In this document: positions 34,908-62,754 of the stretch, piece after piece | Position numbering within the stretch: the first letter of the stretch is position 1 | How the letters are laid out: the number at the start of each line of letters is the position of its first letter | Assembly: GCF_021172045.1 (NCBI RefSeq) | Contig: NZ_CP087164.1 | Location: 2,356,001 to 2,420,000, forward strand | Length of the DNA: 64,000 bases | Reading direction: 5' to 3' | DNA from: Capillimicrobium parvum | Lineage (GTDB): Bacteria; Actinomycetota; Thermoleophilia; Solirubrobacterales; Solirubrobacteraceae | The notes under the pieces: generated by a model | Told to the model about the DNA's origin: nothing | Database searches by the model: none | The model's input: only the letters and a program-made list of their open reading frames with translations | Position numbers and translations under genes: made by a program

Positions 34908-35155
34908 TGGAAATACGCTGTCGCGAATGGCGCTGCCCCAAATCGGCCGCCGTCGGTTCGACTGTCCGCAAGGTGAGAATACTTGGCGAGGGAGGTGGAC
35001 GCAGGCGATGCGACCGTCATCGCTCAGAGCACCTCAAGCATGCAGAATCGGTCCAGTACCGAATTGGTCACCGCTTCGCGCCGGGTGTGGGAACGTGACG
35101 CACCGGCTTTACAGTGCTCGTGCCCGCGGCTAGGTTAGCGGTTGGAGAGGGGCAG

Positions 35156-37339
35156 ATGATGCATACAACCATGGAGTCCGTTCGTGCGGAGCGTGGCGTG
35201 CCGGCGTGGTTCCGTTCGGTAGCGGGAACGGTCGTGCGAGACGCGACGGCCGCGGACGTGACGCGCGCGCTGGCCCGCTGGTCGTCAGCCTACGAGAGCC
35301 TGTCGCCAACCCTGGCCCCGTGCCGACCCGTCGATGAGCGGGTGCTGCGGCGCAGGCTCGAAGGACTGGCCGCCGCCGTCGGACGAAACAACCCGTCCGC
35401 ATTCATGGCGCAGCTCGAGGAGCTCGGGCAGGATCTTGCCCGATCACGCGTTCGCGTCGGCAGTGTGGTCCGAGGGGCGCAGGCTGCCTGGCTCTGTCTG
35501 TCCGAGCTCGCCGAGCGTCTGCCCGCTCCTCCGAACCCCGAGTCTGTGCTCCTGGCGGTATACGAGAGCCTCGACGTGGTCCTCAACGCGTACAACGAGA
35601 CGTTCGCCATGAGCGGCGCGATCACGCTCCCCGGGGCCGAGCAGAGCCAGCCGCTGCTGACGTCGCCGATGCTGGGTAGCGGCGTCTTGGAGGTGCCTAC
35701 GAGCACAGCGGAGCTGGATCGGCTACTCCCGCAGGCGCTGGCGCGTGCCGTTGCGACGGTCGGCGCCGAGAGCGGTTCGCTGCTGCTGCGGTCGGACCTC
35801 GTTGGCGGAGAGATCGACGAGTGGGTCCTCACGACCGCGGTTGGCCTTCCCGTCCCGCATGCGCTGCGTTTTCCGCGGGACTCCAACGGCTCCAACGAGC
35901 TGACAGCACGGGCCGAGATGCCGGTGGTGATCTCGGCCGCGCGCAACTGGGCCGTCCTGACCGGACCCGAGCGAGAGTTCGTGGAGCGCTGCGGAATCGC
36001 ATCGGCGGTCGGAGTCGCCCTGAGATCGTCGGATGGCGATACGTTGGGCGTGCTCTTCACGAACTCCGGCCGGGAGCGCTTCTTCGATGAAGCGACGTTC
36101 GATGACATTGTTCGGATGGGCCGAACGATCGGCGACTCGCTGGCGCGCACGACCAGGACTCGGGTGTTTCACCAGCCGCTGGCGTCGCTGGGCGACTCAG
36201 TCAGCAGCCGGGAGCTGAGCGTGGTGGAAGAGCGGCTGATGAGCGCACTCATGCGCGATCGCGACCTCGAGGACGTCTGTCGTGCCCTCGAGGAGTCGTC
36301 CGGGTGCAGCCTCCGGGTCGTCGAGGAGAGCCGGGGCGTCGTCTACTCCTCCAGCGACGTCGCATCCGCCGAACTGGTCCCCGGTGCGAGCAGCGGCGAT
36401 CACGGAGGCCGGCACGGCACGGCGGAGCGCTCGATCCTCGGTAGCGACGGCTTCGCCTGGGGCCGGGTCATCGTTCGCGACAACGCGCGCACGGACGGTC
36501 CGCGGGCGACGCTGCTCGAAGTCGCCACGGCTGCGGTCTCCGGCATCGAGCGCTGGGAGCGGGCGCGCGCATCGGGCCGTCGCCTCTCCCTTGCGCTGGA
36601 TCACTGCCTGGCGGGCGTTCTCCATGGATCGCGGAGCGTCGACGAGTTGACCGGCCACCCCGATTTGCGGCGCCTCGGGGACCCGCCCTATCGACTCGCC
36701 GCGATCGTCCTCGACGAGCCGATGCCAGCGGACGCGCAGTTTGACCCGCGCGACGCGGTGAGGGACGCCCCTGCGCGGCGCCTGATGCCGATCACCACGC
36801 GCGACGCGATGCTGTGGATCGGACCATCGGACGCCCTGACGCAGGACGCGATCCGCGACCTGTTGGCCTTCCGTGCCCGTGTCGAGCGGCGTCGCTTGGT
36901 GGGACGCCTCGTGCTCAGCCCCAGGTTCGACTCGATCACCCGCGTGCTCAACATCGGCAACGCCCTGCGCCAGACCGCGGAACTCGCGCGAAAGGCGGCC
37001 CTGGACGCCGTGCTCGACGGGCACGAGCTCGGAAGCGACGAGCTCCTGCTCCTGGGGGAACCCGAGCTGCGACAGCGGTTCGTCGAGCGGGTCGCCGGGC
37101 GACTGTTCGAGTACGACCGCCTGCACGACACGGAACTCGTCAAGTCGGTCGCCGTCTTCCTCGACCATGGGTGCAGCATCAAGCACGCAGCTGAACGCCT
37201 CTACGTCCATCCGAACACGCTGCGGTACCGGCTCGGGCGGGCCGAGGCGCTCGTTCCCGGGATCCTGGACAGCGGCGAAGGCCGCCTCCACGTGCAGCTG
37301 GCGTTGACGCTCTCAGACTCCGAGCCTGGCTCTTCGTAG
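35156..37339 (+). CDS. PucR-family transcriptional regulator with RsbRD-like and GAF domains
   Basis: 727 residues. N-terminal helical region about 30-150 resembles RsbRD-type sensor domains (RALARWSSAYESLSPTL, SVVRGAQAAWLCLSELAE). A GAF-like domain spans about 185-335 (ARAVATVGAESGSLLLRSD, SAVGVALRSSDGDTLGVLF). The C-terminal PucR helix-turn-helix is HGCSIKHAAERLYVHPNTLR (about 673-690). PucR proteins activate purine and other N-compound catabolism. ATG 35156 follows GGAGAGGGGCAG; a GTG 42 nt upstream is possible but lacks a site. It is the first gene of the 28-kb plus-strand catabolic run and is the natural regulator of it, sensing a substrate through GAF. Confidence 0.9.
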   Translation: MMHTTMESVRAERGVPAWFRSVAGTVVRDATAADVTRALARWSSAYESLSPTLAPCRPVDERVLRRRLEGLAAAVGRNNPSAFMAQLEELGQDLARSRVRVGSVVRGAQAAWLCLSELAERLPAPPNPESVLLAVYESLDVVLNAYNETFAMSGAITLPGAEQSQPLLTSPMLGSGVLEVPTSTAELDRLLPQALARAVATVGAESGSLLLRSDLVGGEIDEWVLTTAVGLPVPHALRFPRDSNGSNELTARAEMPVVISAARNWAVLTGPEREFVERCGIASAVGVALRSSDGDTLGVLFTNSGRERFFDEATFDDIVRMGRTIGDSLARTTRTRVFHQPLASLGDSVSSRELSVVEERLMSALMRDRDLEDVCRALEESSGCSLRVVEESRGVVYSSSDVASAELVPGASSGDHGGRHGTAERSILGSDGFAWGRVIVRDNARTDGPRATLLEVATAAVSGIERWERARASGRRLSLALDHCLAGVLHGSRSVDELTGHPDLRRLGDPPYRLAAIVLDEPMPADAQFDPRDAVRDAPARRLMPITTRDAMLWIGPSDALTQDAIRDLLAFRARVERRRLVGRLVLSPRFDSITRVLNIGNALRQTAELARKAALDAVLDGHELGSDELLLLGEPELRQRFVERVAGRLFEYDRLHDTELVKSVAVFLDHGCSIKHAAERLYVHPNTLRYRLGRAEALVPGILDSGEGRLHVQLALTLSDSEPGSS

Positions 37340-37417
37340 CGGTCTCCAGCCGGCTGCCGCGCTTTGGCGTGCGCGACAGCCGGTTTGTCAGTCGCGACGA
37401 AGACCGGCCCCACATGC

Positions 37418-37443
37418 GTCATTACGGTCGTCAACGTGATGAC
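37418..37443. promoter_or_regulatory. 26-bp inverted repeat upstream of the isochorismatase-like gene
   Basis: GTCATTACG (37418-37426) and CGTGATGAC (37435-37443), 8 of 9 positions complementary, separated by GTCGTCAA. It lies 43 nt before the start codon at 37486, in the gap after the PucR gene. Size and placement suit an operator or activator site for that regulator; the assignment is inference. Confidence 0.5.
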
Positions 37444-37485
37444 AGCTGCTGCCGTTCGACCGCCTGGCGCCGCCGGATCCCTGCG

Positions 37486-38193
37486 ATGACCGAGGACGGC
37501 AAGCACAACGCGGAAACGTCACCCAACGACGACGCCGAAGCCGTCTCGGCGATGTACGACGCGGCGGGCATCCGTCGCCGACTGGGGTTCGGCGAGCGCC
37601 CGGCCGTCGTCGTGGTCGACCTGTCGAAGGCGTTTACATCCATGACGCACCCACTCGGCTCGGACATGGAGGACGTCATCGTGTCGACGGTCGAGCTCAT
37701 CACCGTCGCTCGAGACGTGGCGGCGCCCGTCTTCTTCACCACCATCGCCTACCTGGACGGCGCGGGGCCCGGGACCTGGGGCATGAAGTCGCCAGTCCTG
37801 CTGTCGCTCGTCGACGGCGGTCCTGACGTGGCGATCGACGACCGGCTCGGGCGGCGGCCGACCGAGCCGCTCATCACGAAGGCGGGGGCGTCGGCGTTCT
37901 TCGGCACCAACCTCGCGGCACAGCTGACCCACGCGCGGGTCGACACCGTCCTCGTGGCGGGTGGCTCCACCAGCGGATGCGTGCGCGCGACCGTGGTGGA
38001 CGCGATACAGCTGGGCTTCCGCCCCATCGTGCCGCGTCAATGCGTGGGCGACCGGGCGGACGGACCGCACCGCGCGAGCCTGATCGACATGGACGGCAAG
38101 TACGCCGACGTGCTCGACCTCGCCGCTGTCATCGATTGGCTGCGATCGCCGTCGGCTTCTCGGTCGGACCATCGGCCCCAGCCGGCGGCGTAG
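37486..38193 (+). CDS. Isochorismatase-family amidohydrolase (maleamate / N-carbamoylsarcosine amidase type)
   Basis: 235 residues. The catalytic triad of cysteine amidohydrolases is present: Asp45 in AVVVVDLSKAF, Lys132 in LITKAGASAFFGTNL and Cys165 in GGSTSGCVRATVVDA. GFGERPAVVVVD and the DMDGKYADV end match maleamate amidase (NicF) and N-carbamoylsarcosine amidase. The enzyme would split an amide to ammonia and acid (maleamate to maleate if NicF). ATG 37486 is chosen over earlier in-frame starts whose N-terminus is low-quality and overlaps the operator. The neighbouring NicX homologue favours the maleamate reading, while a creatininase-family gene nearby keeps N-carbamoylsarcosine possible. 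Confidence 0.85.
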   Translation: MTEDGKHNAETSPNDDAEAVSAMYDAAGIRRRLGFGERPAVVVVDLSKAFTSMTHPLGSDMEDVIVSTVELITVARDVAAPVFFTTIAYLDGAGPGTWGMKSPVLLSLVDGGPDVAIDDRLGRRPTEPLITKAGASAFFGTNLAAQLTHARVDTVLVAGGSTSGCVRATVVDAIQLGFRPIVPRQCVGDRADGPHRASLIDMDGKYADVLDLAAVIDWLRSPSASRSDHRPQPAA

Positions 38194-38204: not shown

Positions 38205-39269
38205 ATGACGCCGGTCAGGACAAAGCTCATCCAGCTGTTCGAGGCGGAGTTCGACCTTTGCAACGTGCGTGCCGGTGAGAGCGTCGTGATCCTGTCCGAC
38301 AGCGTTCGTCGCGAGACGACGCATCTCGGACTCTATGCGGAGGCGGCGGCTGCCGTCGCCGCTGCGCGCGGGGCGCACGTCTACGAGATCGTCGTCCGCC
38401 CGACCGCCGGGAACGCGGGGCGCGCGGGATTCGGCACCGACGCCTTCGCGTCCGTCGTCGGCGAGAGCGCGATCTCGCCTCTTCCGAACGTCGTCGACGC
38501 GCTGGTGCGAGCAGACTTCGTCGTCGATCTCCTGCTGCTGCTGCATTCGCCCGAGCAGATGGCCATCCTCGAATCGGGCACCCGGATCCTGCTCGTGCAG
38601 GAGCCGCCTGACGTGCTCGAGCGCCTGTTCGCCTCCGAGCAGCTCACTGCGGATGTGCGCGCGGCGGAGGCGTTGCTGCGTGACGCCTCCGAGCTGCGCC
38701 TGACGTCACCGGCGGGGACTGACGTGACCTACAGGCTCGGCCAGTTCGATCGGCTCACGGCCCAGATCGGATACGCCGACTCGCCGGGGACCTGGGACCA
38801 CTTCTCGGCCGGGGGGCTGCTCGCGGCCTACGGCGACGAGGACGGTGTCGACGGCACCGTCGTCATCGCGCCCGGAGACGCGCTGTTTCCGTTCAAGCGC
38901 TACGTCCAATCGCCGATCGAGCTCTCGATCGAACGCGGCTACATCACCGCGATCGACGGAGGCGCCGACGCCCAGCTCTTCGCCGATTACCTGGACTACT
39001 GGGACGACGCAGATGCCTACGCCGTGTCACATATCGGATGGGGCCTGAACCAGCGAGCGCGCTGGTCGACGATGGCCACGATGGACATGCGTCACACCAT
39101 CGGAATGGAACAGCGATGCATCGCGGGATGCGTGCTGTTCTCGACCGGCCCGAACGTCGATGGCGGCGGGTCGCGTAACACCAAATGTCACTGCGACATA
39201 CCCCTGAGACATTGCACTCTTGAAGTCGACGGACGACGCGTGGTGGCCGGCGGCAAGCTGGTCGCCTGA
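38205..39269 (+). CDS. 2,5-dihydroxypyridine 5,6-dioxygenase (NicX) family protein
   Basis: 354 residues, like NicX in length and motifs. Shared blocks are LLLHSPEQMAILESGTRILL (His114, the proposed base), EPPDVLERL, SHIGWGLNQRARWSTM, LFSTGPNVDGGGSRNTKCH and CDIPLR, with the iron-ligand pair His329 and Asp331. The family cleaves a dihydroxypyridine ring to N-formylmaleamate using Fe(II) and O2, and shares its fold with M29 aminopeptidases. The third ligand, Glu177 in Pseudomonas NicX as I recall it, aligns with Gln187 here, so activity may differ. TAGGAGGTGGTCAC precedes ATG 38205. Adjacent to the maleamate-amidase-like gene, matching the nicotinate pathway order. Confidence 0.82.
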   Translation: MTPVRTKLIQLFEAEFDLCNVRAGESVVILSDSVRRETTHLGLYAEAAAAVAAARGAHVYEIVVRPTAGNAGRAGFGTDAFASVVGESAISPLPNVVDALVRADFVVDLLLLLHSPEQMAILESGTRILLVQEPPDVLERLFASEQLTADVRAAEALLRDASELRLTSPAGTDVTYRLGQFDRLTAQIGYADSPGTWDHFSAGGLLAAYGDEDGVDGTVVIAPGDALFPFKRYVQSPIELSIERGYITAIDGGADAQLFADYLDYWDDADAYAVSHIGWGLNQRARWSTMATMDMRHTIGMEQRCIAGCVLFSTGPNVDGGGSRNTKCHCDIPLRHCTLEVDGRRVVAGGKLVA

Positions 39270-52910: not shown

Positions 52911-53774
52911 GTGAAACCGGCCCGCTTCGAGTACAGATGCCCGACGACCGTGTCAGCAGCGATCGAGCAACTCGCCGAGGCCGGCGAGGAAGCCCGCTTT
53001 CTCGCCGGTGGGCAGAGCTTGATCCCGCTGATGGGACTGCGCCTGGCCGCGCCGACCCGGCTCATCGACCTCGGGCGGATCCCCGAGCTGCGTTACGTCG
53101 AGGTGGCGGACGGGTTGCTGCGGATCGGTGCCATGACGACGCAACGCACGCTCGAGCGCTCCACGGCCGTTGCCGAGGCAGCGCCGCTCCTGGCCGGTGC
53201 GATGCCCTATATCGGCCACCGGGCGATCCGCGCCCGCGGGACCATTGGGGGCAGCGTCTGCCACGCCGACCCCACGGCCGAGCTGCCCGTCGTGTTACGG
53301 GCACTGGACGCCGAGTTCGTCGCACAGGGGCCGGCCGGGCCGCGGACCATCCCGGCCGAGGACTTCTTCGAGACGCTGTTCACCAGCGCGCTGCAGGAGG
53401 ACGAAATGCTCGTTGAGGTGCGGATCCCCACGACGACGGGCCGCCGCTGGTGGTTCGACGAGGTGTCGCGGCGCCACGGAGACTTCGCGATCGTGTCGTG
53501 CGCGGCGATCGTGGGACGAAACGGCGACCCGCCACGCGTCGTGTTGGGTGGCATGGCGTCGACGCCGCTTCGCGTCGAGAAGGCCGAGCAGCACATCGGC
53601 GGCGATCCGGAGGCCGCCCGGGCCGCCGCTCGCGTCGGTGTGCAGGACACAGATCCGACGACCGATCTCCACGCGAGCGCGGCAACGCGACGCCGCATCG
53701 CCGAAGCGCTGGTGGCCCGCGCCCTGCGCGCGGTGACAGCAACCGACGGCACCTCAGAAGGAGAGAAGCGATGA
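52911..53774 (+). CDS. coxM: Molybdenum hydroxylase FAD subunit (CoxM)
   Basis: 287 residues. The FAD-binding motifs of the CoxM/XdhB family are clear: FLAGGQSLIPLMGLRLA and RARGTIGGSVCHADPTAELP, plus the C-terminal cluster with GDFAIVSCAAIVG and VVLGGMASTPLRV. It passes electrons from the iron-sulfur subunit to the acceptor. Start GTG 52911 after GGAGGTGAGGGGCAC. Its stop overlaps the CoxS start (ATGA), and CoxL follows, giving the standard M-S-L order. Confidence 0.95.
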   Translation: MKPARFEYRCPTTVSAAIEQLAEAGEEARFLAGGQSLIPLMGLRLAAPTRLIDLGRIPELRYVEVADGLLRIGAMTTQRTLERSTAVAEAAPLLAGAMPYIGHRAIRARGTIGGSVCHADPTAELPVVLRALDAEFVAQGPAGPRTIPAEDFFETLFTSALQEDEMLVEVRIPTTTGRRWWFDEVSRRHGDFAIVSCAAIVGRNGDPPRVVLGGMASTPLRVEKAEQHIGGDPEAARAAARVGVQDTDPTTDLHASAATRRRIAEALVARALRAVTATDGTSEGEKR

Positions 53775-54250
53775 CGAGCTCGAAGGAGCTGGTCGAGGTC
53801 GTGATGACCGTCAACCAGACCGAGGTCACCCGCACGGTCGAGCCGCGCCTAACGCTCGCGGACTTCATCCGCGACGAGCTGGATCTCACCGGAACCAAGC
53901 TCGGCTGCGAACACGGCGTGTGCGGTGCGTGCACCGTCCTGCTCGAGGGTGAGCCGGTGAGGTCCTGCTGCACACTGGCCGTTCAGGCGGCGGGCGGGAC
54001 CGTCCAGACCGTCGAGGAGCTATGCCGGCTGCCACGTGGGGCTCGGCTGCGGGAGAGCTTCAAGAAGCACCATGCGCTGCAGTGTGGCTTCTGCACGCCC
54101 GGCTTCCTCGTCACCAGCTATGAGCTGCTCGAGGATCGTGACGAGCTGACCGTGGAAGAGGCTCGCCGTGAGCTCTCCGGGAACATCTGTCGCTGCACCG
54201 GCTACCAGGGGATCGTCGCCGCCGTGGTAGAGGCCAGCGGAGCCGACTGA
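53771..54250 (+). CDS. coxS: Molybdenum hydroxylase 2Fe-2S subunit (CoxS)
   Basis: 159 residues. Two [2Fe-2S] clusters are fully ligated: the plant-type N-terminal cluster by Cys46, Cys51, Cys54 and Cys66 (LGCEHGVCGACTVLLEG) and the C-terminal helical cluster by Cys105, Cys108, Cys140 and Cys142 (QCGFCTPGFLVTSYELL and GNICRCTGYQG). It links the Mo site in CoxL to FAD in CoxM. ATG 53771 overlaps the coxM stop; the longer open frame upstream is a coxM shadow. Standard length for the family. Confidence 0.96.
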   Translation: MTSSKELVEVVMTVNQTEVTRTVEPRLTLADFIRDELDLTGTKLGCEHGVCGACTVLLEGEPVRSCCTLAVQAAGGTVQTVEELCRLPRGARLRESFKKHHALQCGFCTPGFLVTSYELLEDRDELTVEEARRELSGNICRCTGYQGIVAAVVEASGAD

Positions 54251-54264
54251 ACGGAAACGCGCTG

Positions 54265-56619
54265 ATGGTTGAGAACAAGACGTTCACCCGTGGGAAGTTC
54301 GTGGGTGCGCGGGTGCCGCGGGTCGAGGACGATCGGTTCTTGACGGGGAGTGCGAGGTTCATCGCCGATGTGAAGGTGGCGGGGATGAAGCATGTGGCGT
54401 TTGTGCGGTCGCCGTATGCGCATGCGCGGGTGGTGTCGGTCGACGTGTCGCAGGCGTTGGCGCTGGCCGGGGTGGCCGCGGTTGTGACCGGGGAGGACCT
54501 GGCCGACGTCGGACGGCTGGTGGACGCCATGCAGATCGAGGGGTTGTCGAAGACGCCGCAGCCGGTGTTGGCGGTGGATCGGGTGCGGTTCGTGGGTGAG
54601 GCGGTTGCGGCGGTGGTGGCCGAGGACCGGTATGTGGCCGAGGATGCCGCGGATCTGGTGGTGGTCGAGTATGAGCCGTTGGGTGCGGTGACGGATGCGG
54701 TGGCGGGGATGGCGGCGGATGCGCCGGTGTTGTTTGAGGAGTTGGGCACGAACGTGCTGTATCGGCGGTCGCGTGCGCATGGTGATACGGATTCGGCGTT
54801 CGCGGCGGCTGATCGGGTGTTCGAGGGGCGGTTTCACACGAACCGGTTCATGGCGGCTCCGATGGAGACACGTGGGGCGATCGCGACCTTCGAGACCGGC
54901 CCCGACCGCCTGCACATCCAGACGTCCAGCCAGACGCCGCACCTGCTGCGGATGGCGCTCGCCGGCGTCCTGGGCATGCCGGAGCAGCGGATCCGGGTGA
55001 GCACGCCGGCGGTGGGCGGCGGCTTCGGCCAGAAGATCGCGACGTCGCCCGAGGAGGTCGTGGTCGCAGCGCTGGCGCGGCGATTGGGTTGTCCGGTGAA
55101 GTGGGTGGAGGATCGTCGGGAGAACCTGATCGCGGGCAGTCACGCCAAGGAGCAGATCATCTCGCTGGAGTTGGCGGTGACCGGGGAGGGCCGGATCCTC
55201 GGCATGCGCGCCCAGCTCATCGGCGACGGCGGCGGCTACTCCTTCAACACGTCCAGCATCCTCGTGGAACCGCAGGTCGCCGCCCAGAGCATGCCCGGGG
55301 TGTACGACATCGCCAACTACGACTACGAAGTGATCGGGGTCGTGACGAACAAGACGCCCGTGGCCTCGTTCCGGGGGATCGGCTGGACGGCGGGGCATTC
55401 GGCGCGGGAGCTGTTGTTCGATGAGGTCGCGCGTGATCTGGGGCTCGATCCGGCGGAGTTTCGGCGGTTGAACATGATCGCGCCGGGCTCGTTTCCGCAT
55501 CGCACGTGCACGGACATGCTCTATGACTCGGGCAGCTATACGGAGTCGCTGGCCGACGCGCTGGAGATGGTCGACTACCGCGCGCTGCGCGAGCGTCAGC
55601 GCGAGCTGCGCGCGCAGGGGCGCTACATCGGCATCGGCATCAGCCCCTACAACGAGCTCACCGGCTTCGGGACGGACTCCGCCTCGCAGGCCGGGTTCCC
55701 ATTTCCCTCACATGACAACGCAATGGTCACGGTTGAGCCGACCGGGAAGGTGACGGTGGCGGTGGGCTTTCATTCGCATGGGCAGGGGCATGAGACGACG
55801 TTTGCTCAGGTCGCGGCGGATGGGTTGGGCGTGGCGATCGAGGACGTCGCGGTGGTGTTCGGCGATACGAGCACGTCGCCGTTCGGGATGGGGACGTATG
55901 CGAGTCGCAGCGCGATCATCGGCGGCGGGACGGTGTCGCTGGCCGCGGCTCGGGTGCGCGAGAAGGTCCTGGCGGCGGCGGGCCGGTTGTTGGAGGTCTC
56001 GCCCGAGGATCTGGAGATCGTCGATGGTCGGGTGTCGGTGGCCGGCGATCCGGACGCGGGCGTGTCGTTTGCGGAGGTGGCGGGCGCCGCGTACTTCGAT
56101 CCTCGGGTTCGAGGCGAAGGCGAGGACGTCTATCTGTCGGCGACGATGTTCTATGACCCGCCGGCGACGTACTCCAACGGCACGATCATCGCGGTCGTCG
56201 AGGTCGACCCGGAGACGACCGAGATCACGATCGAGCGGATCGTGGCCTCCGAGGACTGCGGAACGGTGATCAACCCGATGATCGTCGAGGGCCAGGTTCA
56301 CGGCGCGATCGCCCAAGGCATCGGCGGGGCGCTGCTCGAGCACCTCGCCTACGACGAGCAGGGCCAGCCGCTGGCGACGACCTACATGGACTACCTGATC
56401 CCGACCACGATGGAGGTCCCGCGGATCGACGTCAACCATCTCGAGAGCCCGTCGCCGTTCTCGATCGGCGGGATCAAGGGCATCGGCGAAGGCGGTCTGA
56501 TCTCCGCGCCCGCCGCCGTCACCTGCGCGGTCCTCGATGCCCTCGCCCCCTGGGAGCCCCGCCTGCGCACCCTGCCCGTCACCCCCGACCGCATCGCCGA
56601 GATCTGCCGACAAGAGTGA
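54265..56619 (+). CDS. coxL: Molybdenum hydroxylase large subunit, copy 1
   Basis: 784 residues. Starts near the conserved RGKFVGARVPRVEDDRFLTG. Molybdopterin-site motifs are TPAVGGGFGQKIAT, the loop TPVASFRGIGWTAGHSAREL (no AYXCSFR, so not a form I CO dehydrogenase) and the catalytic glutamate in IKGIGEGGLISAPAAV. It hydroxylates the substrate carbon; N-heterocycles are typical for this group. It follows CoxS by 14 bp. A paralogue starts 2.7 kb downstream with a constant offset of 2729 bp and an almost identical C-terminal quarter. Differences cluster in loops around the active site. Confidence 0.95.
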   Translation: MVENKTFTRGKFVGARVPRVEDDRFLTGSARFIADVKVAGMKHVAFVRSPYAHARVVSVDVSQALALAGVAAVVTGEDLADVGRLVDAMQIEGLSKTPQPVLAVDRVRFVGEAVAAVVAEDRYVAEDAADLVVVEYEPLGAVTDAVAGMAADAPVLFEELGTNVLYRRSRAHGDTDSAFAAADRVFEGRFHTNRFMAAPMETRGAIATFETGPDRLHIQTSSQTPHLLRMALAGVLGMPEQRIRVSTPAVGGGFGQKIATSPEEVVVAALARRLGCPVKWVEDRRENLIAGSHAKEQIISLELAVTGEGRILGMRAQLIGDGGGYSFNTSSILVEPQVAAQSMPGVYDIANYDYEVIGVVTNKTPVASFRGIGWTAGHSARELLFDEVARDLGLDPAEFRRLNMIAPGSFPHRTCTDMLYDSGSYTESLADALEMVDYRALRERQRELRAQGRYIGIGISPYNELTGFGTDSASQAGFPFPSHDNAMVTVEPTGKVTVAVGFHSHGQGHETTFAQVAADGLGVAIEDVAVVFGDTSTSPFGMGTYASRSAIIGGGTVSLAAARVREKVLAAAGRLLEVSPEDLEIVDGRVSVAGDPDAGVSFAEVAGAAYFDPRVRGEGEDVYLSATMFYDPPATYSNGTIIAVVEVDPETTEITIERIVASEDCGTVINPMIVEGQVHGAIAQGIGGALLEHLAYDEQGQPLATTYMDYLIPTTMEVPRIDVNHLESPSPFSIGGIKGIGEGGLISAPAAVTCAVLDALAPWEPRLRTLPVTPDRIAEICRQE

Positions 56620-56957
56620 TGGGCCGGTCGACCCGACCCGACGTGGTCGTCGGTGCGTCGGCCCCCGCAGGGCCTGGTCACATGCTGCCGGTTTGTGCTG
56701 TCGGGGAACGAGCGTGACGAACATCGTGGTGCCGGCCGGCTCGTCGAACGGTTGACGCGCCGGGCACCGGGAATACTCGGCCGTCCAGGAGGAGCGTGGG
56801 CACGCTCCGCGGAGTCTGGCGCCTGAGGGCGCCGAATCCCGCACCTCGGCGCGAGTCCCTCGTCTGACGCGGTCGTGGGACCTGGCTCGATGTGAGCCAC
56901 AGCGCTGGACACCCTCCAGGTTTGGTCGTGGCGACGAGCGGTTTGTGAGCGTCCACC
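56620..56957. other. 338-bp gap between the two coxL copies
   Basis: No gene seen. It contains two compact hairpins: GGAGCGTG-GG-CACGCTCC at 56791-56808 and GGCGCC-TGAG-GGCGCC at 56818-56833. These could end transcription of copy 1 or protect its mRNA, and a separate promoter for copy 2 may lie to the right. No clear ribosome-binding site precedes the copy-2 ATG. The sequence is not shared with the region before copy 1, so the duplication covered only the coding part. Confidence 0.5.
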
Positions 56958-59360
56958 ATGACGCCACTGGGGGTGCCGGCAGATAGTTGCACAGTGGATA
57001 CGAGCAGCCTCTTGGTCCGTGGGAAGTTCGTGGGTGCGCGGGTGCCGCGTGTCGAGGACGATCGGTTCTTGACCGGCAGCGCGCGGTTCCTCGCCGATGT
57101 GAAGGTGGCGGGGATGAAGCATGTGGGGTTCGTGCGATCGCCGTATGCGCATGCGCGAATGGTGTCGGTCGACGTGTCGCGGGCGTTGGCGCTGCCCGGA
57201 GTGGTCGCGGTCGTGACCGCCGAGCACCTGCACTCCGTCGCCCCCCTGGTCGACCCTCTCGCGGTCGAGGGTTTGTTGAAGACGCCGCAGCCGGTGTTGG
57301 CAGTGGATCGGGTGCGGTTCGTGGGTGAGGCGGTTGCGGCGGTGGTGGCCGAGGACCGGTATGTGGCCGAGGATGCGGCTGATCTGGTGGTGGTCGGGTA
57401 CGAGCCGTTGGGTGCGGTGACGGATGCGGTGGCGGGGATGGCGGCGGATGCGCCGGTGTTGTTTGAGGAGTTGGGGACGAACGTGCTGTATCGGCGGTCG
57501 CGTGCGCATGGTGATACGGGGGCGGCGTTCGCGGCGGCGGATCGGGTGTTCGAGGGGCGGTTTCACACGAACCGGTTCATGGCCGCTCCGATGGAGACGC
57601 GGGGGGCGATCGCGACCTTCGAGACAGGACCCGACCGGCTCCACATCCAGACCTCCAGTCAGACGCCGCACCTGCTGCGTATGTCCCTCTCTGCGGCGCT
57701 CGGCATGCCGGAGCAGCGGATCCGGGTGAGCACGCCGGCGGTGGGCGGCGGCTTCGGCCAGAAGATGGCGACGTATCCCGAGGAGGTGATCGTCTGCGAG
57801 CTTGCCCGGCGGCTGGGTTGTCCGGTGAAGTGGGTGGAGGATCGTCGGGAGAACCTGATCGCGGGCAGTCACGCCAAGGAGCAGATCATCTCGATGGAGC
57901 TAGCGGTGACCGGGGAGGGCCGGATCCTCGGCATGCGCGCCCAGCTCATCGGCGACGGCGGCGGCTACTCCTTCAACACGGCGAGCGTCCTGATCGAGCC
58001 GCTCGTCGCGGCGCAGCTGATGCCGGGCGTCTACGACATCGCCAACTACGACTACGAAGTGATCGGGGTCGTGACGAACAAGACGCCCATCGGGCCCTTC
58101 CGGGGCGTGGGCTGGACGGCGGGGCATTCGGCGCGAGAGCTGTTCTTCGATGAGGTCGCGCGTGATCTGGGGCTCGATCCGGCGGAGTTTCGGCGGTTGA
58201 ACATGATCGCGCCGGGGTCGTTTCCGCACCGGACGTGCACGGACATGCTCTATGACTCCGGCAGCTACACGGAGTCGCTGGCCGACGCGCTGGAGATGAT
58301 CGACTACTGGGCGTTGCGCGAGCGTCAGCGCGAGCTGCGCGAGCAGGGACGTTACATCGGCATCGGCATCAGCCCGTACAACGAGCTCACCGGCTTCGGG
58401 ACCGATGCCGGCTCGCAAGCTCTCCTTCCCGTGCCGTCGAACGACAGAGCGGTCGTCACGGTGGAGCCGACGGGGAAGGTGACGGTGGCGGTGGGCCTGC
58501 ATTCGCACGGGCAGGGGCATGAGACGACGTTTGCCCAGGTCGCGGCGGATGGGTTGGGCGTGGCGATCGAGGACGTCGCGGTGGTGTTCGGCGACACGAG
58601 CACGTCGCCGTTCGGGATGGGCACACACGCGAGTCGCAGCGCGATCATCGGCGGCGGGACGGTGTCGCTGGCCGCGGCTCGGGTGCGCGAGAAGATCCTG
58701 GCGGCGGCCGGCCGGTTGTTGGAGGTCTCGCCCGAGGATCTCGAGATCGCCGATGGTCAGGTGTCGGTGGCCGGCGATCCGGATGCGGGCGTGTCGTTTG
58801 CGGAGGTGGCGGGCGCCGCGTACTTCGATCCTCGGGTTCGAGGCGAAGGCGAGGACGTCTATCTGTCGGCGACGATGTTCTACGACCCGCCGGCGACGTA
58901 CTCCAACGGCACGATCATCGCGGTCGTCGAGGTCGACCCGGAGACGACCGAGATCACGATCGAGCGGATCGTGGCCTCCGAGGACTGCGGAACGGTGATC
59001 AACCCGATGATCGTCGAGGGCCAAGTTCACGGGGCGATCGCCCAAGGCATCGGCGGGGCGCTGCTCGAGCACCTCGCCTACGACGAGCAGGGCCAGCCGC
59101 TGGCGACGACCTACATGGACTACCTGATCCCGACCACGATGGAGGTCCCGCGGATCGACGTCAACCATCTCGAGAGCCCGTCGCCGTTCTCGATCGGCGG
59201 GATCAAGGGCATCGGCGAAGGCGGACTGATCTCCGCGCCCGCCGCCGTCACCTGCGCGGTCCTCGATGCCCTCGCCCCCTGGCAGCCCCGCCTGCGCACC
59301 CTCCCCGTCACCCCCGACCGCATCGCCGAGATCTGCCACAACGGCAATCGCACGCCATGA
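56958..59360 (+). CDS. coxL: Molybdenum hydroxylase large subunit, copy 2
   Basis: 800 residues, colinear with copy 1 from RGKFVGARVPRVED to the end; I count roughly 55-60 differences over about 770 aligned residues. The patches that differ include the loop after GGGFGQK (MATYPEEVIVCELARR against IATSPEEVVVAALARR), the Mo-proximal loop (TPIGPFRGVGWTAG against TPVASFRGIGWTAG), and SQALLPVPSNDRAV against SQAGFPFPSHDNAM. The last 190 residues differ at one position. The catalytic glutamate GIGEGG is kept. It probably pairs with the same CoxM/CoxS and gives a second substrate specificity. ATG 56958 has no strong ribosome-binding site. Confidence 0.93.
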   Translation: MTPLGVPADSCTVDTSSLLVRGKFVGARVPRVEDDRFLTGSARFLADVKVAGMKHVGFVRSPYAHARMVSVDVSRALALPGVVAVVTAEHLHSVAPLVDPLAVEGLLKTPQPVLAVDRVRFVGEAVAAVVAEDRYVAEDAADLVVVGYEPLGAVTDAVAGMAADAPVLFEELGTNVLYRRSRAHGDTGAAFAAADRVFEGRFHTNRFMAAPMETRGAIATFETGPDRLHIQTSSQTPHLLRMSLSAALGMPEQRIRVSTPAVGGGFGQKMATYPEEVIVCELARRLGCPVKWVEDRRENLIAGSHAKEQIISMELAVTGEGRILGMRAQLIGDGGGYSFNTASVLIEPLVAAQLMPGVYDIANYDYEVIGVVTNKTPIGPFRGVGWTAGHSARELFFDEVARDLGLDPAEFRRLNMIAPGSFPHRTCTDMLYDSGSYTESLADALEMIDYWALRERQRELREQGRYIGIGISPYNELTGFGTDAGSQALLPVPSNDRAVVTVEPTGKVTVAVGLHSHGQGHETTFAQVAADGLGVAIEDVAVVFGDTSTSPFGMGTHASRSAIIGGGTVSLAAARVREKILAAAGRLLEVSPEDLEIADGQVSVAGDPDAGVSFAEVAGAAYFDPRVRGEGEDVYLSATMFYDPPATYSNGTIIAVVEVDPETTEITIERIVASEDCGTVINPMIVEGQVHGAIAQGIGGALLEHLAYDEQGQPLATTYMDYLIPTTMEVPRIDVNHLESPSPFSIGGIKGIGEGGLISAPAAVTCAVLDALAPWQPRLRTLPVTPDRIAEICHNGNRTP

Positions 59361-60247: not shown

Positions 60248-60292
60248 TGCCCTTACGGGGAGTCGTTGGCAACAACAAATCGAGGAGTCCCG

Positions 60293-61504
60293 ATGTCACG
60301 ATCAGACCTAGAGATCACGCAAGACGTCGGCGGCCGGAAGGCGCGCTGTCGGGGCCGCGGCGTGGGCACCCTCGCGATCCTCTTGGCGATGATCCTCACC
60401 CTAGCCTTCGCGAGCGGGTGTGGGAGTAGCGACGATACCAGCACGGCAGCCTCCACGGCCGAGCCCGCGGCGGCGGACGAACCGGCGGGCGATGCGGTGG
60501 CGGCCGCGGAGAAGAAGGTCGCAGAGCTCTCCAAGACCGAGGGGGTGAAGTTCCCGGTTCCCGACAAGCCGTTCGATCCGGGCCACAAGCGGGCGGCGGT
60601 GATCATGGCGGGGCAGGACGAGGGCTTCACGGCGATGGTCGACTCGCTGAAGGAGGCGGCCGACACCATGGGTTGGACGCTGGGACCGCCGATGGACGGG
60701 AAGTTCAACCCGGCCGCTCAAGCAGGGTTCATCCAGCAGGCGGTCAACGAGAAGTATGACGCGATCATCCTGCTCGTCATCGACGCGGTGAACATCGAGT
60801 CGGCGTTGGCGGCAGCGAAGCAGGCGAACATCCCTGTCGCGTGCCTCATGTGCGAGAACAAGGGGTACGAGGACGAGATCATCGACGTCACGACAAGCGG
60901 TCGCCCGGGCGGCGAGGCGATCGCGAACTATGTCACCGCAGCCTCGGGCGGCAAGGCGAAGGTTCTGCTGTTCGACGACAAGGCGTACTCGATCGTGAAG
61001 ACGCGCGTGGAAGGTTTCCGAGACACGCTCGCTCAGGTCTGTCCGGAGTGCGAGATCGTCGACACGGTGCAGATGACGCCGGCCAGTCTCGCGAAGCCGG
61101 GGCCGCCCGAGTGGCTCGGCGCGCTGCGGCGTTACTCGCCGGACGATTTCGACTGGACCGTCTTCCCGTACGACTACTACGCGATCCCGGCCGGCAAGAC
61201 GGCGCTCGAACAGGGACGCAACGTCGCAATCACGGGCTACGACGGATCGCCGGAGATGGTGCGCATGATCGAGAAGGACGGGCCGGTGTTCAAGGCCACC
61301 GTCACCGCCCCGTTCGAGTACCTCCCGTGGGCCGCGCTGGACCAGGTCGCTCGGGCCTCGGCCGGTCTCGAGACGTGGGACACCACTCAGCTGCCGTTGC
61401 GTCTGGTCACTCCGCAGAACGCGGCGAAGTTCCCGAAGGGGTGGTACGTGCCGCACGACTTCGATCCCAAGGCGGCGTTCGCCCCCATCTGGTCTGGCGA
61501 ATGA
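60293..61504 (+). CDS. Substrate-binding lipoprotein of a sugar-type ABC transporter, copy 1
   Basis: 403 residues. A lipoprotein signal spans about 35-57 (TLAILLAMILTLAFASGC) with the lipobox cysteine in ASGCGSSDD, then a low-complexity Ala/Asp linker. A periplasmic-binding-protein type 1 domain follows: KRAAVIMAGQDEGFTAMVDS, YDAIILLVIDAVNIESALAA and VAITGYDGSPEMVRMI. GAGGAG precedes ATG 60293. It should deliver ligand to the RbsA/RbsC-type components at 42.5-45.2 kb. The second copy is 47 bp downstream and shares the whole layout. The ligand may be the heterocycle or a nucleoside-like compound rather than a sugar. Confidence 0.9.
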   Translation: MSRSDLEITQDVGGRKARCRGRGVGTLAILLAMILTLAFASGCGSSDDTSTAASTAEPAAADEPAGDAVAAAEKKVAELSKTEGVKFPVPDKPFDPGHKRAAVIMAGQDEGFTAMVDSLKEAADTMGWTLGPPMDGKFNPAAQAGFIQQAVNEKYDAIILLVIDAVNIESALAAAKQANIPVACLMCENKGYEDEIIDVTTSGRPGGEAIANYVTAASGGKAKVLLFDDKAYSIVKTRVEGFRDTLAQVCPECEIVDTVQMTPASLAKPGPPEWLGALRRYSPDDFDWTVFPYDYYAIPAGKTALEQGRNVAITGYDGSPEMVRMIEKDGPVFKATVTAPFEYLPWAALDQVARASAGLETWDTTQLPLRLVTPQNAAKFPKGWYVPHDFDPKAAFAPIWSGE

Positions 61505-61551
61505 TCATCAAACGGCGGCTCGGCAAGCTGGCGAGTTGAGGAGCGGGGGAC

Positions 61552-62754
61552 ATGGTGCGGACGAGAACGCGCGAGGCATCGGGTGAACCGCAGAAGGCAT
61601 CGGTGGGACGGGCAGGATGGCTGCTCGCGGTCGTGGTGGTGGTCTGCGGGCTCGGGTTCGTCGGCTGCGGGAGCGGCGACGACTCCAGTGGCTCGACCGT
61701 GCGAACAGCGACCATCGTCGCGTCCAGCGGCGGTGATCAGGAGGTCGTCGCCAAGGCCAAGGTGCAGGTCGAGCAGCTCATGGAGACCGAGGGCGTGAAA
61801 CTGCCGGCACCGACCGAGCCGTTCGACCCGGGCAAGAAGCGGGTCGCAGTGATCCTGGCCGGCCAGGATGCGGGTTTCGACGCGATGAACGAGGGCGTCC
61901 ACGAAGCGGCGAGGACGATGGGCTGGACGGTGGGTCCGTCGATGGACGGAAAGTTCAGCCCGACGGCTCAGGCCGGCTTCATCCAGCAGGCGGTCCAAGA
62001 GAAATACGACGCGATCATCCTGCTCGTCATCGACGCCGCGACCGTGGAGTCTGCCCTCGCCGCAGCCAACAAGGCGAACATCCCGGTTGCCTGCGTCATG
62101 TGCGACAACGAGGGCTATGAAGGAAAGATCTACGACGTCACGACCGGTGGCTACCCCGCTGGACAGGCCATGGCGCAGTATGTGATCGCCGACTCGGGCG
62201 GAAAAGCGAAGATCCTCGTGTTCAACGACAAGGGCTTCGCCATCAATCCGCGCCGCGTCGCCGGATTCGAGGACACGATCGCGAAGGACTGTCCTGGGTG
62301 CAAGGTCGTCGCGGATCTCCAGACATCCGCCGCGGAGCTGAGCGACGCTGGTCCGCCGTCCTGGCTGGGCGCGCTGAGGCGCTATCCCGAAGGGAGCTTC
62401 GATTACGTGGTGTGGCCCGGTGACTACTGGGCGGTGCCCGCCGGCAAGACGGCTCAGGAGCAGGGACGCGAGGTCGGCGTCACCGGCTACGACGGCACGC
62501 CCGAGATGGTCGGCCTGATCAAGCAGGGCGGCACGGTGTTCAAGGCGACGATCTCGGCGCCCTTCCCGTACCTGGGTTGGGCGGCGCTGGACGTGGTGGC
62601 GCGGGCGTCCGCCGGGCACGATGTCTGGGACACGACGCAGATGCCCGTCCGGCTGGTCACAGCCGACAACGCGGCGGACTTCCCCCACGGTTGGTTCGTG
62701 CCGAGGGATGTCGATCCCAAGGCAACGTTCGGCAAGCTCTGGCAGGGCAGTTGA
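61552..62754 (+). CDS. Substrate-binding lipoprotein of a sugar-type ABC transporter, copy 2
   Basis: 400 residues, paralogous to the protein encoded just upstream. Signal and lipobox: WLLAVVVVVCGLGFVGC with the cysteine followed by GSGDDSS. Binding domain: KRVAVILAGQDAGFDAMNEG, EKYDAIILLVIDAATVESAL and GVTGYDGTPEMVGLIKQGG. Extensive similarity but many substitutions, so the duplication is not recent. An unusual shared N-terminal element (VEQLMETEGVKLPAPTEPFD here) precedes the domain in both. GGAGCGGGGGAC precedes ATG 61552. Two receptors for one transporter would broaden its ligand range. Confidence 0.9.
   Translation: MVRTRTREASGEPQKASVGRAGWLLAVVVVVCGLGFVGCGSGDDSSGSTVRTATIVASSGGDQEVVAKAKVQVEQLMETEGVKLPAPTEPFDPGKKRVAVILAGQDAGFDAMNEGVHEAARTMGWTVGPSMDGKFSPTAQAGFIQQAVQEKYDAIILLVIDAATVESALAAANKANIPVACVMCDNEGYEGKIYDVTTGGYPAGQAMAQYVIADSGGKAKILVFNDKGFAINPRRVAGFEDTIAKDCPGCKVVADLQTSAAELSDAGPPSWLGALRRYPEGSFDYVVWPGDYWAVPAGKTAQEQGREVGVTGYDGTPEMVGLIKQGGTVFKATISAPFPYLGWAALDVVARASAGHDVWDTTQMPVRLVTADNAADFPHGWFVPRDVDPKATFGKLWQGS

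What the first reader, a model, noticed from the sequence alone, without database searches (positions are those of the whole stretch)
54265..59360. Tandem mosaic coxL genes: conserved shell, divergent active-site loops
Seen: constant 2729-bp offset over the full length with no net indel, near-identical C-terminal quarter (one difference in about 190 residues), and differences packed into a few patches beside the Mo-site motifs GGGFGQK and FRG(I/V)GW. Only one coxM and one coxS exist. Inference: gene conversion homogenises the scaffold while selection keeps two substrate pockets that share the electron-transfer subunits.
Basis: partly seen in the sequence, partly recalled or inferred. Interest (0 to 1): 0.6.

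Follow-up and report, generated by a model that had tools for sequence, protein, structure and literature searches.

The report
Mosaic twin molybdenum hydroxylase catalytic genes
Two neighbouring, nearly identical genes for the catalytic subunit of a quinoline-oxidase-like molybdenum enzyme have been partly overwritten by each other but still differ at positions that line the substrate pocket, so one bacterium may run two specificities off one set of electron-transfer parts.

Summary
Genes A (54265-56619) and B (56958-59360) align without a gap over 773 codons at offset 2729 and share 91.5% of residues. Silent divergence is not uniform: the last third is almost identical even at silent sites, while short islands approach silent saturation. 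Silent and replacement differences fall in the same places. That fits gene conversion between two old tandem copies better than one recent duplication. Residue differences include four of ten published substrate-channel positions (258, 330, 372, 545). Position 545 is Tyr in A and His in B, and matches a residue that is essential in nicotine-pathway Kdh.

Corrections: these are not CO-dehydrogenase coxL genes. The closest solved relative is quinoline 2-oxidoreductase (1T3Q), the CODH cysteine motif is absent, and the cluster carries a 2,5-dihydroxypyridine dioxygenase homologue and an isochorismatase-family amidase, so N-heteroaromatic catabolism is likelier than CO oxidation. Not every island is adaptive: one (197-221) is silent-only, and silent peaks centred on channel residues alone are not significant once the C-terminal part is excluded. 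Selection for two pockets is plausible, not proven. Conversion-shielded islands are known (opsins); this case with shared M and S subunits appears new.

The parts
52911..53774 (+). FAD-binding medium subunit (M), the only one in this operon
   Evidence: Best NCBIfam match glyceraldDH_beta, below its cut-off; AGGQS and TIGG motifs in the translation
53777..54250 (+). 2x[2Fe-2S] small subunit (S), the only one in this operon
   Evidence: Best NCBIfam match glyceraldDH_gamma, below its cut-off; cysteine motifs in the translation
54265..56619 (+). Catalytic large subunit A (784 aa), quinoline 2-oxidoreductase-like
   Evidence: Three Pfam domains; 1T3Q 724 bits; AlphaFold pLDDT 92.6; VIA Z 50.6 to 1T3Q
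56620..56957 (.). 338-bp spacer between A and B with no recognisable copy of either flank
   Evidence: blastn against the window and fetched loci
56958..59360 (+). Catalytic large subunit B (800 aa), tandem paralogue of A
   Evidence: 91.5% identity to A, same frame, intact
54397..54549 (+). Divergent patch 1 in A (aa 45-95; counterpart in B +2729)
   Evidence: A/B residue identity 0.69 in aa 45-96
54955..55071 (+). Divergent patch 2 (aa 231-269), includes the residue after GGGFGQK (I258/M)
55252..55290 (+). Divergent patch 3 (aa 330-342), channel helix; S330/A aligns with Qor W331
55360..55380 (+). Divergent patch 4 (aa 366-372), active-site loop SFRGIG/PFRGVG
55678..55725 (+). Divergent patch 5 (aa 472-487), just after the Qor G470 position; B is mostly the derived copy
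55897..55899 (+). Isolated Y545 (A) / H (B), equivalent to Qor Y545 and Kdh W551
   Evidence: Alignment; function from PMC8305194
56032..56553 (+). Homogenised C-terminal tract (aa 590-763), no residue difference
   Evidence: 4-fold silent differences 5/111 for aa 557-778 against 53/325 before it, Fisher p=0.001
38205..39269 (+). 2,5-dihydroxypyridine 5,6-dioxygenase (NicX) homologue, substrate clue
   Evidence: PDB 7cn3, E=9.6e-78
37369..38193 (+). Isochorismatase-family amidase (nearest 4l07 and N-carbamoylsarcosine amidohydrolase), substrate clue

Best explanation
A and B are two functional, tandem, quinoline-oxidoreductase-like molybdenum hydroxylase catalytic subunits that share one FAD subunit (M) and one iron-sulfur subunit (S) in an N-heteroaromatic (pyridine-type) catabolic cluster. 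The copies diverged long ago; gene conversion later homogenised most of the gene, above all the C-terminal quarter, leaving short old islands. Several islands line the substrate channel, and the two copies probably hydroxylate different or successive ring positions or substrates. Shown: the mosaic, intact reading frames, purifying selection, pocket differences, and the operon context. Inferred: conversion as the mechanism, retention of islands by selection, sharing of M and S, and the substrates.
For: Silent divergence is two-state: about 6% background and about 49% in islands, where saturation for this base composition is 53%. Silent and replacement differences co-locate even with the C-terminal part excluded (31% against 17%, no circular shift reaches it). 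In patches the A-B protein distance is 0.48 against 0.03 elsewhere, while the distance to the nearest outgroup rises only from about 0.6 to about 1.0, and A+B remain sisters; these patches were chosen on A/B differences, so the silent sites are the independent test. Flanks and spacer share nothing although the 3' ends are about 99% identical. Four of ten channel positions differ. No difference hits an invariant or nearly invariant family column. Each copy carries its own residues unseen in 34 relatives at or near pocket sites (A: S330, I332, S368; B: L477, H545). Polarised differences are shared evenly, 22 A-like and 19 B-like. Nearest fold and sequence are QorL. A NicX-like gene and an amidase lie in the cluster.
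Against: Island 197-221 has silent differences only, so islands need not mark selection. Silent peaks around channel residues fixed beforehand are not significant within aa 8-590 (p=0.09 to 1). Difference sites are also simply more variable in the family (entropy 2.39 against 1.74). No close relative carries the pair, so conversion cannot be shown by comparing species. Distances to the metal could not be measured because the tools do not return coordinates.
Confidence: 0.6

Rival explanations
1. Neutral mosaic: conversion tracts fell at random, islands are chance survivors, and both copies do the same job (dosage). Pocket differences simply reflect the most tolerant positions.
For: Silent-only island 197-221; difference sites are family-variable sites; no replacement excess, pN/pS about 0.26.
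Against: Four of ten channel residues differ (p=0.004, circular shift 0.6%), including the substrate-binding position 545, where His occurs in none of 34 relatives.
Confidence: 0.27
2. Imported patches: a recent duplicate pair in which short stretches of A or B were replaced from other large-subunit genes (paralogues or horizontally acquired alleles).
For: Very short islands with dense silent and replacement changes; the genome has about 12 related genes.
Against: No own-genome paralogue matches any patch well (at most 0.71 for the 7-residue P4, at most 0.54 for the others). A+B stay sisters in pooled patches. GC3 of patches is alike in A and B.
Confidence: 0.08
3. Assembly or polishing artefact: reads of one copy overwrote part of the other.
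For: Homogenised tracts are what mis-polishing would make; the genome is a single contig and reads are not available.
Against: Copies differ by 8% of residues overall and both frames are intact; island silent divergence is near saturation, so most of the gene was resolved as two copies.
Confidence: 0.05

Closest known systems
Quinoline 2-oxidoreductase QorMSL (Pseudomonas putida 86, PDB 1T3Q)
   Same: Same three-subunit layout and fold (Z 50.6, 48% identity), GGGFGQK, FRG-(I/V)-G loop, catalytic Glu
   Different: Here two tandem mosaic large subunits follow one M and one S; substrate unknown
6-hydroxypseudooxynicotine dehydrogenase Kdh (PDB 7DQX)
   Same: N-heteroaromatic Mo hydroxylase; its channel residues E345 and W551 map onto positions 331 and 545 here
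   Different: About 36% identical; residue 551 is Trp there, Tyr/His here; single large subunit
Aerobic CO dehydrogenase CoxL (form I)
   Same: Same superfamily and three-subunit arrangement
   Different: The AYRCSF cysteine loop is missing here; lower scores; family cut-offs not met
Duplicate genes with divergence peaks under gene conversion (human red/green opsins; copepod GOT1)
   Same: Low divergence from conversion with islands of high divergence (PMC3924837, PMC3728101)
   Different: Eukaryotic genes with population or species data; here one bacterial genome and a multi-subunit metalloenzyme

Membership tests
Xanthine-oxidase-family Mo hydroxylase, large subunit | Ald_Xan_dh_C, MoCoBD_1 and MoCoBD_2 domains | tested here: met
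   All three over cut-off in A; MoCoBD_1 over cut-off in B as well
Xanthine-oxidase-family Mo hydroxylase, large subunit | Catalytic Glu (E742 in A) and GG(G/A)FG Moco loop conserved in both copies | tested here: met
   E742, G251, G252, F254, G255 invariant in 36 sequences; no A/B difference there
Quinoline 2-oxidoreductase-like N-heteroaromatic hydroxylase | QorL is the closest characterised relative in sequence and fold | tested here: met
   724 bits against 568 for CoxL; Z 50.6 and 48% identity, though CODH fold scores are close (48.4)
Quinoline 2-oxidoreductase-like N-heteroaromatic hydroxylase | Hydroxylates quinoline or another N-heteroaromatic | not testable with these tools
   Needs an assay; only cluster context
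Form I CO dehydrogenase CoxL | Active-site loop with Mo-Cu cysteine (AYRCSF) | tested here: not met
   Loop reads SFRGIG / PFRGVG; motif from PMC8305194
CO dehydrogenase (NCBIfam TIGR02416 / NF040766) | Score over curated cut-off | tested here: not met
   592 of 991 and 631 of 950 bits
Tandem duplicates under gene conversion | Non-uniform silent divergence with homogenised tracts | tested here: met
Tandem duplicates under gene conversion | Paralogues cluster by genome in homogenised tracts across species that share the duplication | not testable with these tools
   No other species with the pair found among 399 class genomes or the genome contig scan
Selection-maintained divergence peaks | Silent divergence peaks centred on the selected sites | tested here: inconclusive
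   Silent/replacement coupling significant, but windows fixed on channel residues are not, within aa 8-590

The most novel reading that the evidence does not exclude
Gene conversion maintains one common scaffold that docks to a single shared M/S pair, while selection shields a set of pocket loops scattered in sequence, giving two alternating catalytic subunits that carry out two successive hydroxylations of one N-heterocycle.
Probability: 0.3. Interest if true: 0.6.

Novelty: new variant of a known kind. Interest (0 to 1): 0.42.

Why it matters
If right, it is a natural experiment in specificity: about 58 differences, grouped in a few loops on a near-identical scaffold, would mark the residues that set the substrate of a quinoline-oxidoreductase-like enzyme. 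It would also show concerted evolution and pocket divergence acting together on a bacterial multi-subunit metalloenzyme, and would correct the habit of labelling such genes coxL.

Tried and rejected
CO dehydrogenase: rejected on loop motif and scores. Donor paralogue for the patches: none found. Spacer as a remnant of the duplication: no similarity. Other adjacent large-subunit pairs as parallels: L040, L046, L070 and L148 pairs are 39-46% identical, and the G392 inverted pair is 58% identical with silent sites differing throughout, 134 of 283; none is a mosaic of this kind. The two neighbouring binding-protein genes are an older pair with high silent divergence throughout. Silent peak around channel residues fixed beforehand: not significant without the C-terminal part. 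Mapping onto xanthine dehydrogenase residues through paralogue L019 gave no XDH alignment. Distances to the Mo site could not be computed, as no coordinates are returned. Literature searches found no case of two large subunits sharing M and S, but the library is partial.

Full report
What was checked. Genes A (54265-56619, 784 aa) and B (56958-59360, 800 aa) lie head to tail behind one M gene (52911-53774) and one S gene (53777-54250). They align without a gap from codon 8 to about codon 780 at a constant offset of 2729. Residue identity is 91.5%. There are 58 residue differences in codons 8-780 and only one in codons 590-780.

Is divergence uniform? No. Over 777 codons pS is 0.168 and pN 0.044. 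Using only 4-fold sites of unchanged residues, 58 of 436 differ; they are clustered (gap-variance p=0.0026; HMM LRT 19.5, null maximum 10.9), with a low state of 6% and a high state of 49%. Permuting within codon family gives the same (p=0.0025), and the expected saturation for these third-base frequencies is 53%, so islands are close to saturation. The C-terminal part (aa 557-778) has 5 of 111 silent differences against 53 of 325 before it (Fisher p=0.001). Without the C-terminal part, silent clustering alone is weak (gap variance p=0.046, longest run p=0.22), but silent differences remain concentrated within two to three codons of replacements (31% against 17%, no circular shift reaches it).

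Age and mechanism. The 338-bp spacer and both outer flanks share nothing, yet the 3' parts of the genes are about 99% identical. In patches the A-B protein distance is 0.48 against 0.03 elsewhere, while distance to the nearest outgroup (L039) rises only from about 0.6 to 1.0; A and B remain sisters. The patches were chosen on A/B differences, so that ratio is biased upwards and the silent sites are the independent evidence. Changes polarised with four outgroups are even, 22 A-like and 19 B-like: in 330-372 A is mostly derived, in 473-545 mostly B. This fits old tandem copies with later conversion better than import into one copy. No paralogue of the genome is a donor. Controls: other adjacent large-subunit pairs are far more diverged, and where silent sites were checked they differ throughout the gene; the adjacent binding-protein pair likewise.

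What enzyme? All three XO-family domains are present. The best solved relative is quinoline 2-oxidoreductase, 724 bits against 568 for a CoxL, and the AlphaFold model of A (pLDDT 92.6) matches 1T3Q best (Z 50.6, 48% identity; CODH Z 48.4, 36%). The form I CODH cysteine loop is absent and CODH cut-offs are not met. The cluster carries a 2,5-dihydroxypyridine 5,6-dioxygenase homologue (7cn3, E=9.6e-78), an isochorismatase-family amidase, a creatininase-family protein, a PucR-type regulator, a ribose-type ABC transporter and two binding proteins. From general knowledge of nicotinate and nicotine pathways, NicX followed by an amidase is the lower half of hydroxypyridine degradation. N-heteroaromatic hydroxylation is thus the likely activity; the actual substrate is not known. 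The host is close to Solirubrobacterales (RpoB 80% to a Solirubrobacterales MAG).

Where do A and B differ? Published channel residues of Qor and Kdh (PMC8305194) were mapped through the alignment. Four of ten differ: 258 (I/M; Qor A259, Kdh G273), 330 (S/A; Qor W331, Kdh A344), 372 (I/V; Qor V373, Kdh P385) and 545 (Y/H; Qor Y545, Kdh W551). Enrichment p=0.004, circular shift 0.6%. Kdh W551A is inactive (PMC8305194). None of 34 relatives has His at 545 or Ser at 368. No difference touches an invariant or nearly invariant column. Both copies look functional and their pockets are not the same.

Limits. Island 197-221 has silent changes only. Windows fixed on channel residues show no significant silent excess within aa 8-590. 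Difference sites are also more variable in the family. So selection for two pockets is the better but not the only reading. No second genome with the pair was found, reads were not available, and coordinates for distances were not returned.

Comparison with what is known. Divergence peaks under gene conversion are established theory, with opsin and GOT1 examples (PMC3924837, PMC3728101). What seems new is the setting: a bacterial molybdenum hydroxylase operon with one M, one S and two mosaic L genes.

Noticed in passing
60266-62754: Two tandem sugar-type periplasmic binding proteins (58% identity over their full length, 65% in the core) lie downstream of the duplicated catalytic genes, so transporter receptor and enzyme are both doubled.
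   Followed up: partly
37369-38193, 38205-39269, 35114-37339: Isochorismatase-family amidase and NicX-like dioxygenase next to a PucR-type regulator, suggesting a hydroxypyridine catabolic cluster.
   Followed up: partly
1-256 (gene starts before the window): End of another XO-family large subunit, about 40% identical to A; the genome has about 12 such genes in all.
   Followed up: no
L176 (G392:C45:24000-43999): Five XO-family large-subunit genes within 20 kb on both strands, two of them an inverted neighbouring pair of 58% identity.
   Followed up: partly
L039:1866-10846: In a Thermomicrobium MAG the closest relative (62%) sits as M-S-L followed by binding protein, ABC ATPase, permease and KipI-like genes: a single-L version with similar transport genes.
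   Followed up: partly
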